In this document: positions 3,639 to 7,347 of the stretch, piece after piece
How positions within the stretch are numbered: the stretch's first letter is position 1
How the letters are laid out: each line of letters begins with the position of its first letter
From: Peteryoungia aggregata LMG 23059
GTDB taxonomy: Bacteria; Pseudomonadota; Alphaproteobacteria; Rhizobiales; Rhizobiaceae
Length of the DNA stretch: 64,000 nt
Assembly (NCBI RefSeq): GCF_030814435.1
Contig: NZ_JAUSUW010000019.1
Location: forward strand, 1 to 64,000
Direction: 5' to 3'
Translations under genes and position numbers: made by a program
Notes under the pieces: generated by a model
The model's database searches: none
What the model saw: the letters and a program-made list of their open reading frames with translations, nothing else
What the model was told of the DNA's origin: nothing

Positions 3639-4052
3639 TCAAAACTCCCAGGGATTGATCAGTTCGAGCGCGCAATGGCGAAAGTCATCGACGTTGCGGG
3701 TTGCAAGCGGCCCACCTTTGGTCTTTGCGACGGCCGCAATCATGCCATCGGGCGCAGACATCGTCGTCCCCCGGCGTTTTGCATCCCCCATGATCTCACC
3801 ATAGGCAAGCGCCGCCTCTTCACCGAAGCCATGGATGCGCCCGGCAAACCGGCTCCGCCAGTCCTTGAGGGAAAGCTCGAGCCGTGGTGCCCGTTCGTCA
3901 TCGCGAATCTTTGCAATGCCATAGGCGATCTCGCCAATCACGATACTGGATAGCGCAAGTTCGGCATCGTAGCGGATCAGCCACGCAATCACCGCCTCGT
4001 TCGGCTCCTTCTTGAAGGTCTCGGAGACCACATTGGTGTCGAGAAAGATCAA
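3639..4052 (-). CDS. vapC: PIN-domain ribonuclease toxin (VapC/FitB type)
   Basis: 137 residues, typical for a PIN toxin. The acidic metal-binding positions are present: Asp in FLDTNVVSE at residue 5, Glu in VIGEIAYG, Asp in SAPDGMIAA and Asp in NVDDF. The family cuts RNA with Mg2+ and is held inactive by its cognate antitoxin. The start overlaps the stop of the antitoxin gene by 4 bp (ATGA), so the two are translationally coupled. The FitB-like sequence and complete acidic set suggest an active toxin. Confidence 0.9.
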   Translation of the reverse strand: MIFLDTNVVSETFKKEPNEAVIAWLIRYDAELALSSIVIGEIAYGIAKIRDDERAPRLELSLKDWRSRFAGRIHGFGEEAALAYGEIMGDAKRRGTTMSAPDGMIAAVAKTKGGPLATRNVDDFRHCALELINPWEF

Positions 4053-4297
4053 AACTCCGGTCCCTCATGCGCCTTTCGATCCGCCCGGACGACCGCGTCG
4101 AGATCGATGTCGAGCCCCGACTGCGCGCTGATCCGGCGATAGAAATCCGCCGCCGGCTCCCGGCCCGTCTGTTGCGTCTCATAGGCTTCCAGCGCCCGTT
4201 CAACGATGTCGGCGATCGAGCGATTCTCGCGACGTGCGAGCCGATGCGCCAGATCGCGGGCACGGGCGCTGCGGACAGAGAGCTGTGGTTCGGCCAT
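4049..4297 (-). CDS. vapB: VapB-type antitoxin
   Basis: 82 residues. The N-terminal half (QLSVRSARARDLAHRLARR) resembles the DNA-binding part of the VapB/PSK-operon antitoxins, and the acidic C-terminal tail would wrap the toxin. The ATG at 4297 is chosen over TTG at 4303 because AAGGAG sits 7 nt upstream. First gene of the vapBC operon. A perfect 9-bp-arm palindrome lies about 40 bp upstream and is the probable autoregulatory site. Confidence 0.87.
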   Translation of the reverse strand: MAEPQLSVRSARARDLAHRLARRENRSIADIVERALEAYETQQTGREPAADFYRRISAQSGLDIDLDAVVRADRKAHEGPEF

Positions 4298-4335
4298 GGT
4301 CAATCTCCTTGCCGGAGAATATAGCTCCGCGACTG

Positions 4336-4472: not shown

Positions 4473-5762
4473 GTGAACCAGCATGTGACGCCGAAGCCGC
4501 CGCTCGGCCCCAGTTTCCATCGGCTTTTGGCGTCGAGCGGGCTTGCAAACCTCGCCGATGGTATCGGCATCGTCGCCTGGCCGTGGCTCGCCTCGCTGAT
4601 CACCCGCGATCCCCTGGCGATCGCGCTTGTCGGTGTGGCACAGAAACTCCCCTGGTTCCTGTTCGCCCTGCCATCCGGCGTGATCAGCGACCGGCTGGAT
4701 CGTCGCTGGCTGGTGATATCTATGGATTTCCTGCGCTGCGCCACGCTGCTCGGTCTGGCCCTTGCGCTGGTTATTCCCGGCCTGATGCCGCAGACACCGG
4801 TTGCCGATTTCCCCACCATTCCCCTCTACTGTCTGCTGTTGCTGGCGGCCCTGATCGTCGGATTCGCCGAGGTGCTTCGGGACAACTGTGCGATCACACT
4901 CCTGCCATCCATTGTCTCCGTCGACCGGCTGGAAACGGCGAATGGCCGCATGGGCAGCGTGGAAACCTTGATGAACATGATGATCGGCCCGCCGCTCGCC
5001 GGCCTCGTCATCGGCCTCGCACTGCCGCTCGCCTTCGGGCTCTATGGCCTCGCCTTCGCGCTTGCCGGCTTGCTGGTCCTGTCGATTCCCGGCAGGTTCC
5101 GGACCCTGAGACCCGAGCCGCGCCACTGGGTTGCCGAAATCCGCGAGGGGGCTGCTTATCTCTTCGCCCGTCCCCTGCTGCGCGATCTGGCCATTGCGCT
5201 GGGTGTCCTGAATGCCGTCGAGATGATGATGCTGACCGGGCTGGTCCTTTATGGGCAGGAGGTCATGGGCCTGAATTCGGCACAATACGGCCTGCTTCTG
5301 ACCGGTGCCGCAGTCGGAGGCGTGATCGGTGGTCTGGGCGGCGAGGCCGTCATCCGCCGCATCGGCCAGTCCGCCTGCCTGCGTCTGGCCACGGCAACCT
5401 TCCTCGTCCAGGCGCTGGTGATCTTCCTCGTCCCGCTGCCGATCCTTGTCTGGGGCAGCTTCTTCCTGGTGGCGGCAACCAACATGATCTGGAACATCAT
5501 CACGCTGTCTCTGCGCCAGCGCGCTGTGCCGCCGCATCTGCTCGGCCGGGTCAACAGCGTCTACCGCTTCTTCGGTCTGGGCACGATGCCGCTCGGTCTC
5601 GTTCTCTCAGGCGTCAGCGTCACCCTGGCCGAAACAGTGCTGCCGCGCAGTGCAGCCCTGGCCGTGCCCTTTGCCCTCGGCGCCATCCTCTCCCTCCTGC
5701 TGCTCGTCGCAATCTGGACCCGCGTCTCGCCAAAGGCACTCGCCGATTTTCACGCCGGATGA
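4473..5762 (+). CDS. MFS transporter (MFS_3/EntS-like)
   Basis: 429 residues with about 12 hydrophobic membrane segments. The loop between TM2 and TM3 carries the MFS signature as SGVISDRLDRRW. Start is GTG at 4473 with GGAGAG upstream. By similarity it is a major-facilitator exporter of the MFS_3 type, which includes siderophore and drug exporters. The substrate is not evident. It is followed directly by a mosaic repeat and by the AT-rich type III toxin island on the opposite strand. Confidence 0.88.
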   Translation: MNQHVTPKPPLGPSFHRLLASSGLANLADGIGIVAWPWLASLITRDPLAIALVGVAQKLPWFLFALPSGVISDRLDRRWLVISMDFLRCATLLGLALALVIPGLMPQTPVADFPTIPLYCLLLLAALIVGFAEVLRDNCAITLLPSIVSVDRLETANGRMGSVETLMNMMIGPPLAGLVIGLALPLAFGLYGLAFALAGLLVLSIPGRFRTLRPEPRHWVAEIREGAAYLFARPLLRDLAIALGVLNAVEMMMLTGLVLYGQEVMGLNSAQYGLLLTGAAVGGVIGGLGGEAVIRRIGQSACLRLATATFLVQALVIFLVPLPILVWGSFFLVAATNMIWNIITLSLRQRAVPPHLLGRVNSVYRFFGLGTMPLGLVLSGVSVTLAETVLPRSAALAVPFALGAILSLLLLVAIWTRVSPKALADFHAG

Positions 5763-5765
5763 GGG

Positions 5766-5821
5766 GCTCCCACCTTCCCCTTGAGGGGGGAGGTCGCCGC
5801 AAAGCGGCGGGTGGGGGTGAC
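5766..5821. repeat. G/C-rich intergenic mosaic repeat
   Basis: Palindromic element with arms of the type CCACC...CCCCTTGAGGGGGG and GCCGCAAAGCGGC. Related copies lie at 23748, 49822, 50036 and 52846. It belongs to the REP/RIME-like intergenic elements usual in rhizobial chromosomes. It directly follows the MFS stop codon. Confidence 0.7.
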
Positions 5822-5915
5822 GCCGGGGCCTGTAACACGCGGAATTAGGTAGAGACTGTCACCAAACCAAAATCCTGATCAACAGGCTCTTAGGATCGTC
5901 GCTCGTTGCGATGAA

Positions 5916-6383
5916 TTAAGCTGGAGGAACGATCTTGAGTTCTTCGTGGTAATTCTGAAGCGTCGAGTAGCGGTACTCTCTGAGGATGTTCTTATCGCCT
6001 GCGTTGGCCGCTTTGACATACTTCTTGATGTATTTCTCGAATCTCTCGCGAATAAAAAGCTCCCGGTCGGCGATCTTCACGAATTCGTCTTGTGGGATAT
6101 GGAAGGCGTCCTGAGATACGTGTCTTTCATTCTTGATGAGGACCGATTTTGTGTAATCCAGCCCTTTCGTTCCGGTGGTGATGAATGAAGAATGGTGCGT
6201 GATATGGGAACGCAACGGGATACCGAAAAGCATCCCGTTTTCGATGCGCACGGTAACAACCCCGTAGCCACGGGTCTTTTCAGCAGCCAAATCGCCCGTA
6301 GCCCCACCGTGAAGGGCTTCGACTAGATTGCCGTTCTCTTTGAAAAACTCTTCATCAAGTTTGACGACTTTAATTATCTTCAT
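5916..6383 (-). CDS. type III toxin-antitoxin endoribonuclease toxin (ToxN/TenpN-like)
   Basis: 155 residues, the size of type III toxins. The central GMLFGIPLRSHITHH segment, then GLDYTKSVLI and a long helical C-terminus (ERFEKYIKKYVKAA), resemble the TenpN branch of the ToxN/AbiQ superfamily, endoribonucleases that cut their own repeat RNA and other transcripts. Context is decisive: upstream on the same strand lie, in order, a sigma70-type promoter, two 51-nt tandem repeats and a UUCG-loop terminator. The gene is visibly AT-richer than its neighbours, so probably acquired. No strong Shine-Dalgarno precedes the ATG at 6383, which fits low read-through expression. Assignment to TenpIN rather than ToxIN or CptIN is from memory of family patterns. 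Confidence 0.72.
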   Translation of the reverse strand: MKIIKVVKLDEEFFKENGNLVEALHGGATGDLAAEKTRGYGVVTVRIENGMLFGIPLRSHITHHSSFITTGTKGLDYTKSVLIKNERHVSQDAFHIPQDEFVKIADRELFIRERFEKYIKKYVKAANAGDKNILREYRYSTLQNYHEELKIVPPA

Positions 6384-6398
6384 GGAAATCCCGGCAAT

Positions 6399-6426
6399 AA
6401 AAAAAAAGGCCCGAAGGCCTTTTTTT
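6399..6426 (-). terminator. rho-independent terminator between RNA antitoxin and toxin gene
   Basis: A GGCC stem with a UUCG tetraloop (minus strand) flanked by a run of A and a run of 9 T, 16 bp upstream of the toxin start codon. A terminator between repeats and toxin is the standard layout of type III systems. It lets the RNA antitoxin outnumber the toxin mRNA. The flanking A/T runs make it able to work in both directions. Confidence 0.85.
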
Positions 6427-6427
6427 G

Positions 6428-6531
6428 TCAGTCAGTGGGTATTTCAGTTTTTAACGTGGGGCACACCCTACCGCCACATCAGTCAGTGGGTATTTCAGTT
6501 TTTAACGTGGGGCACACCCTACCACCACATC
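6428..6531 (-). ncRNA. tandem-repeat RNA antitoxin (type III TA)
   Basis: Two direct copies of a 51-nt unit (6430-6480 and 6481-6531) plus 2 nt of a further copy. They are identical except at one position (6473 G / 6524 A). Transcribed on the minus strand from a promoter starting a few bases upstream and ended by the terminator at 6399-6426, giving a short RNA of about 130 nt. Within a unit, two complementary pairs are interleaved (GTGG at 4-7 with CCAC at 22-25; GGGTGT at 13-18 with ATACCC at 39-44, one G-U). This is the topology of an H-type pseudoknot, as found in known type III antitoxins. The pairing was done by eye. Confidence 0.75.
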
Positions 6532-6539
6532 ACTAGACA

Positions 6540-6569
6540 CGTATATGTTACGCACATGCACAACGTCAA
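6540..6569 (-). promoter_or_regulatory. promoter of the repeat RNA
   Basis: Minus strand: -35 TTGACG (6564-6569), 17-nt spacer, -10 ATATAC (6541-6546), or TATACG with an 18-nt spacer. The predicted start of transcription, near 6533, coincides with the beginning of the repeat array. Confidence 0.6.
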
Positions 6570-6933
6570 GATCTGTTTTGCAAACGTCAGATCAGCCAGC
6601 GGGCAATACAAGTTTTTGTTCTCCTGTGACTGATATAGGTCACTTGGAGTCATTTTCAGACCGCGATGTCGATTCTTGCCATGGAAAGGCCGTGATTTAC
6701 AATAGTCGTGAAGGCCTAGGCCTGACGCTGATGGAAGGCTCTGGCGCCGAGCGGAGGGTCTCTTGAATTGCCTTCCAATAATTCGAAGTCCGAAACATGA
6801 GCCGCGCAGACGCGCAACACACTGCTCTGCAGGGCTGGTGGCAGGTGCTACCTAGTTTCGCGAATGCGCCGCTGCTCGTCACCCCGGCTTGGACCTACGG
6901 TCAGCCCCTCCTCTCAAGGTAAGGGTGAAGTCA
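6570..6933. other. gap upstream of the type III locus, nothing recognised
   Basis: AT-rich near the island, becoming G/C-rich toward msrB. Short frames exist on both strands, but none has a ribosome site or a recognisable product. Likely flanking DNA of the acquired island. Confidence 0.4.
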
Positions 6934-7347
6934 TCACTTCAACGGCTCAAAAACCATCGAATGCCCGTTGATGCAGTAGCGCAGCCCCGTCGGCTTCGGG
7001 CCGTCGGGGAAGACGTGGCCGAGATGCCCGCCGCAATTGGCGCAGCGGATTTCCGTGCGCACCATGCCGAAGGCGGTGTCGCGGTGTTCGGTGACGGCAT
7101 CCGGCTTTACCGGCTCGAAATAGCTCGGCCAGCCGCAGCCGGCGTCGAACTTGGTGTCGGAGACGAACAGCGCCTCGTCGCAGGCAGCACAGCGATAGAG
7201 GCCCTTGTCGAAACTGTTCCAGTAAGGGCCGGTAAAGGCGCGCTCCGTGCCGTGTTCGCGCAGGATCCGGTATTGCTCCGGCGTCAGCTGCTCGCGCCAT
7301 TCGGCATCCGACTTGCTGATCTTCGGGGCGTTGGTGGGGTTGGACAT
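6934..7347 (-). CDS. msrB: peptide-methionine (R)-S-oxide reductase MsrB
   Basis: Repairs methionine-R-sulfoxide in oxidised proteins. 137 residues. Two CxxC zinc pairs (CAAC and CANC), the GCGWPSYF substrate pocket, GGHLGHVF and the catalytic cysteine in RYCINGHS are all present, so it is predicted active. Cytosolic form, with no signal peptide. The second ATG (7347) has AAGGAG at better spacing than the first (7350). Divergent from the mrp operon. Confidence 0.95.

What the first reader, a model, noticed from the sequence alone, without database searches (positions are those of the whole stretch)
5916..6569. Complete type III (RNA-protein) toxin-antitoxin locus of ToxN/TenpN type in a Rhizobiaceae chromosome
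Seen in order on the minus strand: promoter TTGACG-N17-ATATAC, two 51-nt tandem repeats differing by one base, a UUCG terminator, and a 155-residue AT-rich gene with TenpN-like motifs. The predicted RNA starts at the first repeat. This architecture defines type III TA systems, known as phage-defence and stabilisation modules. Few are described in rhizobia, and the 51-nt repeat seems distinct from ToxIN (36-nt). If confirmed it is probably a new antitoxin RNA sequence.
Basis: partly seen in the sequence, partly recalled or inferred. Interest (0 to 1): 0.85.

Follow-up and report, generated by a model that had tools for sequence, protein, structure and literature searches.

The report
Rhizobial TenpIN toxin with RNA antitoxin
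The stretch holds a small bacterial self-poisoning switch, a probable RNA-cutting toxin paired with a knotted RNA that should hold it in check; it is a rare but genuine-looking member of a known family, and its RNA belongs to a conserved type that some phages also carry on its own, perhaps as a decoy.

Summary
On the minus strand lie two 51-nt repeats (one base different), a UUCG stem-loop and a 155-aa gene. The protein is TenpN-type: NCBIfam TenpIN equivalog, 122.8 bits, cut-off 90. Its predicted fold ranks four type III toxin structures first (Z 11.1-12.3; next row, MazF-type, 7.4). Of 33 TenpN loci read, 27 (window included) carry two related repeat units and no third above shuffled controls. 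An H-type pseudoknot is supported: 14 of 14 distinct S2 strands pair with their own partner (4 bp or more; 48% when swapped), and 0 of 10,000 shuffles reach the score. So this is a TenpIN type III module, and its antitoxin RNA is not new. It lies in a 1,046-bp strain-specific insert beside msrB; 3 of 394 family genomes have TenpN, self included. Toxicity, processing and phage defence were not tested. The surprise lies outside the window: TenpI-like units without TenpN occur in diverse phage contigs and in 25 Aeromonas/Stenotrophomonas phage records, often near tRNA genes. They may be natural decoy antitoxins.

The parts
6540..6569 (-). promoter-like region: -35 TTGACG (6569-6564), best -10 TATACG (6545-6540)
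   Evidence: sequence; TTGAC at this distance in 30 of 46 loci, 0.8% in shuffles; not called by the consensus scan
6482..6532 (-). TenpI unit 1 (51 nt). Within it S1 6528-6525 + 6523-6522 with 6512-6507; S2 6519-6515 with 6492-6488
   Evidence: TRF; model R1 hit 6485-6531, 64.6 bits (R1 was built partly from this unit); covariation
6431..6481 (-). TenpI unit 2 (51 nt), one base different from unit 1; S1 and S2 at the same offsets minus 51
   Evidence: TRF; model R1 hit 6434-6480, 63.8 bits (same caveat)
6401..6426 (-). stem-loop with UUCG loop between antitoxin RNA and toxin gene, terminator-like
   Evidence: 11-bp stem, -12.5 kcal/mol for the stretch folded; not called by the terminator scan
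5916..6383 (-). tenpN, 155-aa toxin, predicted endoribonuclease (stop codon included)
   Evidence: NF047358 TenpIN 122.8 bits, cut-off 90; AlphaFold model pLDDT 85 nearest 4ato, 4glk, 2xd0, 7d8o
5822..6867 (.). strain-specific insert that carries tenpIN; the genus relative G1124 has 15 nt here
   Evidence: blastn of the region; GC 49% against 64-65% in the flanking genes

Best explanation
[quoted passage not shown] Inferred mechanism: one promoter gives an RNA of two pseudoknot units; the stem-loop lets a minority of transcripts read on into tenpN. TenpN, a ToxN/MazF-fold protein and presumably an endoribonuclease, cuts the precursor into units of about 51 nt and is blocked in a complex with them. 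If antitoxin supply falls, as when a phage shuts off host transcription, free TenpN cleaves RNA and stops growth, which aborts infection or punishes loss of the element. Shown here by computation: family, predicted fold, architecture, covarying pseudoknot, insertion. Inferred: transcription, processing, toxicity, neutralisation, phage defence.
For: TenpIN equivalog above its curated cut-off. Fold: four type III toxins at Z 11.1-12.3 over 127-138 residues, then a drop to MazF-type toxins at 7.4 and below. Two related units before the gene in 27 of 33 loci read, window included. S2: 14 of 14 distinct strands pair with their own 3' end, 0 of 10,000 shuffles reach the score; on A2, 98.6% of cells paired against 41-66% when slid. 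TenpIN of Photorhabdus luminescens aborts some phages, not all tested, in published work (PMC5377504 and PMC5449768, passages). TenpN relatives lie on 105 plasmid records. Toxin-less TenpI-like units in phages fit an arms race around it.
Against: No transcript, toxicity or RNA-binding data. The -10 and the terminator fail simple consensus scans. No Pfam or PADLOC family matched, and Foldseek alone gave no E-value below 0.001 (best 0.13, MazF). The single-sequence fold was useless (pLDDT 32). The shuffle controls do not correct for relatedness; one measure (further pair types) is no better than shuffles (394 of 500).
Confidence: 0.94

Rival explanations
1. The same module, but kept as a selfish stabilisation (addiction) cassette with little role in phage defence: it was carried in on mobile DNA and stays because losing it is harmful. 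(A rival on function only; it does not exclude the best explanation.)
For: TenpN relatives on 105 plasmid records, 60 of them typed mobilizable; strain-specific insert in which no other gene was recognised (its other ORFs were not searched against families); CptIN is said to stabilise plasmids without aborting phage in E. coli (section heading in PMC4627078).
Against: TenpIN of P. luminescens aborts some phages (PMC5377504 passages); phages carry TenpI-like units, which is hard to explain if TenpN never harms them. Both roles can coexist.
Confidence: 0.3
2. A decayed, silent module: the sequence looks complete but is no longer expressed or active.
For: Weak -10; rare and patchy distribution; interrupted or toxin-less relatives exist.
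Against: Intact ORF that keeps the invariant TenpN positions of alignment A3, S2 pairing intact in both units, -35 in the conserved place.
Confidence: 0.08
3. Not a toxin-antitoxin module: the repeats are a regulatory RNA and the protein is an unrelated RNA-binding protein.
For: No activity was tested here.
Against: Family, predicted fold and co-occurrence of related units with the toxin in 27 of 33 loci read.
Confidence: 0.02

Closest known systems
TenpIN (type III TA, type system from Photorhabdus luminescens; NCBIfam NF047358)
   Same: Toxin over the curated cut-off; repeats, stem-loop and toxin gene in the same order; Photorhabdus australis (L106) has two units of the same RNA kind before its toxin (one exact match, the second by eye).
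   Different: Rhizobiaceae host, inside a small insert; the two units are nearly identical, whereas several relatives have two clearly different units. The published P. luminescens TenpI sequence was not compared.
ToxIN / AbiQ (type III TA)
   Same: Predicted fold (4ato, 4glk, 2xd0, 7d8o; Z 11.1-12.3), gene order, H-type pseudoknot antitoxin.
   Different: 11-13% identity; 51-nt units twice, against 34-36 nt repeated 2.8-5.5 times in ToxIN/AbiQ (PMC5086642, passages).
CptIN (type III TA)
   Same: A longer (45 nt) H-type pseudoknot derived from two genetic repeats (PMC4627078, passages).
   Different: TenpIN was the only NCBIfam family over its cut-off; whether that library holds a CptN model was not checked. 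The CptN structure was not among the rows, which excludes nothing.
Phage TE pseudo-ToxI
   Same: A phage-encoded RNA that resembles a type III antitoxin (PMC3475682, abstract and passages).
   Different: Wild-type phage TE has 1.5 ToxI-like repeats, does not encode one full unit and must expand them. The TenpI-like units here are full units (S2 of 4 bp or more in 11 of 13) in phage genomes as found, often near tRNA genes.

Membership tests
Type III TA, TenpIN | Toxin of the TenpN sequence family | tested here: met
   NF047358 122.8 bits, cut-off 90, positions 1-141 of 141
Type III TA, TenpIN | ToxN/AbiQ-type fold | tested here: met
   Model pLDDT 85.2; top four VIA-align rows are type III toxins, Z 11.1-12.3; Foldseek alone showed MazF only weakly. 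A predicted, not a solved, structure
Type III TA, TenpIN | Tandem nucleotide repeats directly upstream of the toxin gene | tested here: met
   51 nt x 2.1, 98%; two related units in 27 of 33 loci read, window included
Type III TA, TenpIN | Palindrome between repeats and toxin that acts as a terminator | tested here: inconclusive
   The palindrome is present: 11-bp UUCG stem-loop. A simple terminator scan did not call it and termination itself is not testable here
Type III TA, TenpIN | Antitoxin RNA folds as a pseudoknot | tested here: met
   S2 covariation 14 of 14, 0 of 10,000 shuffles; both-side changes in S1 (1 pair) and S2 (2 pairs). Comparative evidence only
Type III TA, TenpIN | Toxin is an RNase that processes its own antitoxin; RNA neutralises it | not testable with these tools
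   Needs expression and RNA work
ToxIN | 34-36-nt antitoxin repeats | tested here: not met
   Period 51; ToxIN lengths from PMC5086642
CptIN | CptN toxin family | tested here: inconclusive
   TenpIN was the only NCBIfam family over its cut-off; the CptN structure was not listed
Any Rfam family | Match at gathering score | tested here: not met
   13 matches up to E 10 in window 5400-7000, none at its gathering score

The most novel reading that the evidence does not exclude
The TenpI pseudoknot is one side of an RNA arms race: unrelated phages have captured a single TenpI unit (two in one contig) and often placed it within or near tRNA clusters, where tRNA maturation could release it. In the two Aeromonas T4-like phages read it sits on a 19-20-bp clamp stem. 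These would be ready-made decoy antitoxins that neutralise TenpN and so defeat TenpIN defence, in contrast to the partial pseudo-ToxI of phage TE, which works only after expansion. A solitary tenpI with a promoter-like sequence but no toxin, in Rhizobium sp. FKL33, could be a cellular counterpart (anti-addiction RNA).
Probability: 0.6. Interest if true: 0.8.

Novelty: new member of a known kind. Interest (0 to 1): 0.5.

Why it matters
The locus adds a rare rhizobial member to a known defence-linked toxin-antitoxin family. The alignment behind it gives a covariation-supported TenpI pseudoknot, for which no Rfam family matched in the window. Following that RNA brought toxin-less TenpI-like units to light in phage genomes. 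If they neutralise TenpN, natural RNA decoys against type III systems exist in many phages and can be found by sequence, and the question whether phages meet TenpIN in nature becomes testable with isolated phages.

Tried and rejected
Rejected: 'new antitoxin RNA' (27 of 33 loci read share it). Rejected as chance: the Rfam hits (all under gathering score), the PDB sequence hits (E 0.78 and above), and short blastn matches in tail-fibre genes of T4-like coliphages (28% of the query). Led nowhere: the search for related loci with the single protein (no relative confirmed); single-sequence fold; Foldseek alone (the VIA second look resolved it). My first promoter count used a wrong distance window (7 of 46) and was redone with the window set after seeing the distances. 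tRNA parsing inside one search failed, so tRNA statements rest. CptN did not appear, which excludes nothing. Blower 2012 NAR (gks231) is not held, so the published TenpI consensus was not compared.

Rows dropped: of 33 toxin loci read, 27 entered the repeat test, among them near-identical small plasmids (L008, L011, L019). Left out were L020 (Listeria phage, diverged), L071 and L076 (RNA on the other strand), L079 and L081 (diverged), L080 (cut by an IS). A1 used 32 of 46 distinct units. A2 used 13, chosen by me because their S2 lies in one register; most gammaproteobacterial units have S2 one base earlier. Results against: L105 has one unit before its toxin and Paenibacillus radicis at least five (by eye), so 'two' is not universal. 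Two of 13 phage units (L124, L125) have no S2; on phage units alone the S2 test is modest (84 of 20,000 shuffles; 97 of 5,000 with 12 units). Apart from L126 and L127, which came from blastn, the phage units were found by sequence patterns, so their model scores are partly circular. Nearness to tRNA genes was not tested against a background.

Full report
Observation. On the minus strand of window 5916-6569 lie, in transcription order: TTGACG (6569-6564), two 51-nt repeats (TRF 6428-6532, 98%), a UUCG stem-loop (6426-6401; -12.5 kcal/mol) and a 155-aa ORF (6383-5916). The two units differ at one base. They score 82 and 79 against a maximum of 29 in shuffles of the same region. The gene has 48% GC in a 62% window. 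Comparison helps more: TTGAC starts 38-44 nt before the first S1 strand in 30 of 46 loci against 0.8% in shuffles.

Toxin. The protein matches NCBIfam NF047358, TenpIN equivalog, at 122.8 bits (cut-off 90), full length. It also matches phrog_8049, of unknown function. Pfam and PADLOC give nothing; of 23 family members scanned, no Pfam family matches more than one (E up to 0.1). With 24 sequences, from the window and DNA-search loci, AlphaFold gives pLDDT 85.2, pTM 0.81. Foldseek alone is weak (best E 0.13, MazF). VIA-align ranks ToxN of B. thuringiensis (4ato, Z 12.3), AbiQ (4glk, 11.7), ToxN of P. atrosepticum (2xd0, 11.3) and E. coli ToxN (7d8o, 11.1) first, with MazF-type toxins at 7.4 and below (source names of 4ato and 2xd0 partly recalled).

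Antitoxin RNA. I read the DNA before TenpN in 33 loci, window included. In 27 there are two copies of a related unit above shuffled controls and no third; start to start they are 48-55 nt apart. The other six were left out: diverged, on the other strand, or cut by an IS. Among later loci L105 has one unit and Paenibacillus radicis at least five (by eye). Most units share GTGGnGGwA, then CCCCACGTwAAA. S1 pairs GTGG.GG with CCCCAC; S2 pairs the five bases after GGwA with the 3' end. Over 14 distinct S2 5' strands, one unit each, 14 pair by at least 4 bp with their own 3' end (swapped 48%) and 9 by 5 bp (swapped 14%); no shuffle of 10,000 reaches the observed score. On 13 units in one register 98.6% of cells pair, against 41-66% when slid; both-side changes occur at one S1 pair (G-C to C-G) and two S2 pairs (G-C to A-U); the number of pair types is no better than in shuffles (394 of 500). 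These shuffles do not correct for relatedness. In the window S2 is GGGTG with TACCC. So the RNA is very probably an H-type pseudoknot of a conserved kind, found here in Rhizobiaceae, Gammaproteobacteria, an Acidobacteriota plasmid and Bacillota plasmids, and it is not a new kind of antitoxin. No Rfam family reached its gathering score in window 5400-7000.

Context. The genome has one TenpN. In the family 3 of 394 genomes have it; in class and phylum draws 1 of 385 and 2 of 398; in the genus 2 of 60; all counts include the window's genome. With the RNA model 2 of 200 relatives match, the same two genus members. The second genus member, G1173, has a contig of the same length (132,443 bp) and the same repeats as Agrobacterium vitis S00303 (L089). 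It carries tenpIN at another site, with the repeats 86% identical and the toxin only 43%. The genus relative G1124 has 15 nt where the window has 5822-6867. In four other relatives compared (L052-L055) the flanks also match without tenpIN, although the gap between them is longer. Thus tenpIN probably came in as an insert of about 1 kb, next to a dispersed repeat (about 5765-5822) that is common in the genus.

Mechanism. By analogy with ToxIN and CptIN (PMC5086642 passages; PMC4627078 passages and one section), TenpN should cleave the two-unit precursor, bind the units and be inactive until antitoxin supply fails. TenpIN of P. luminescens aborts several phages in published work, but not phages S61 and TE (PMC5377504 and PMC5449768, passages). 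For this locus expression, toxicity and defence are inferred.

Toxin-less TenpI units. An exact pattern scan found 27 genome stretches; 22 hold a TenpN match and 5 do not. One of the five, L111, lies on the same contig as a stretch that has the toxin (L094). The other four, L088, L098, L103 and Rhizobium sp. FKL33 (L104), also have no TenpIN match in the genome searched; L088 and L098 are MAGs and the other two are drafts, so absence is not certain. Four viral scans found 21 stretches; 5 hold TenpN and 16 do not. For 15 of the 16 the whole record was searched and none has TenpN, though records may be fragments; L135 was not searched as a record but has the length of phage 25. PHROG matches to DNA polymerase, helicase, primase, amidase or terminase lie in L087, L118, L120, L121 and L125; the proteins tried in L082 and L117 match less telling families and the one in L083 none. 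In phage genomes from GenBank, 26 records match: one Vibrio phage with a complete tenpIN, and 25 Aeromonas or Stenotrophomonas phage records (18 distinct by name; 82-86% identity, best E 1e-4 to 6e-3). I read two of the 25: phiAS4 and phage 25 have one unannotated unit between tRNA-Pro and tRNA-Thr, on a 19-bp perfect or 20-bp near-perfect clamp stem, and neither record has TenpN.

Of 12 distinct toxin-less phage types, 8 have the unit within about 300 nt of a tRNA gene (L082, L083, L085/L087, L119/L120, L124, L126, L127, L132-L134) and 4 have no tRNA gene in the stretch held (L117, L118, L121, L125); L126 and L127 are one lineage. In L085 a called tRNA (anticodon unclear) starts right after the 47-nt unit. 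No background was computed. S2 of 4 bp or more is present in 11 of 13 units (swapped 47%); the own-partner test on these alone is modest (84 of 20,000 shuffles). I read them as natural decoy antitoxins. They differ from phage TE pseudo-ToxI, whose wild-type 1.5 repeats do not encode one full unit (PMC3475682, passages). Searches of the held library (capped listings, titles and abstract starts seen) listed no paper that describes this; most subscription papers are not held, so this does not show that it is unpublished.

Verdict. A real but rare TenpIN module in a rhizobial genome: new member of a known kind. The interest lies in the RNA family and in its toxin-less copies in phages.

Noticed in passing
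L126 3007-3053; L127 3007-3053; 25 phage records: Unannotated single TenpI-like unit in Aeromonas/Stenotrophomonas phage records; in the two read (phiAS4, phage 25) it lies between tRNA-Pro and tRNA-Thr on a 19-20-bp clamp stem, with no TenpN in the record.
   Followed up: partly
L082 639-685; L083 1087-1133; L085 6008-6054; L124 537-582; L132 about 611-658: Toxin-less TenpI-like units within or near tRNA clusters of other phage contigs; S2 is lost in L124 (and in L125, which has no tRNA in the stretch held).
   Followed up: partly
L104 4671-4717(-): Solitary tenpI unit in Rhizobium sp. FKL33 with TTGACG 42 nt upstream and no TenpIN match in the genome searched.
   Followed up: partly
L071 about 560-800; L076 1-161: Enterococcus faecalis and Staphylococcus arlettae plasmids: the TenpI-like repeats read on the strand opposite to the toxin, i.e. 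divergent gene order (read by eye).
   Followed up: no
L111 3887-4064 with L094: Paenibacillus radicis: an array of at least five TenpI units before the toxin (by eye).
   Followed up: no
L050 4309-4716(-): The TenpN of the second genus member (Agrobacterium vitis S00303) is 136 aa, shortened near the N-terminus, yet has two intact units.
   Followed up: no
window 3639-4303(-): A second toxin-antitoxin-like pair nearby: a PIN-domain (VapC-like) protein with an upstream Rv0623-like/RHH-like partner below its cut-offs.
   Followed up: no
window about 5765-5822: Dispersed repeat of about 55 nt (up to 98% identity) present many times in genus genomes; it borders the tenpIN insert.
   Followed up: partly
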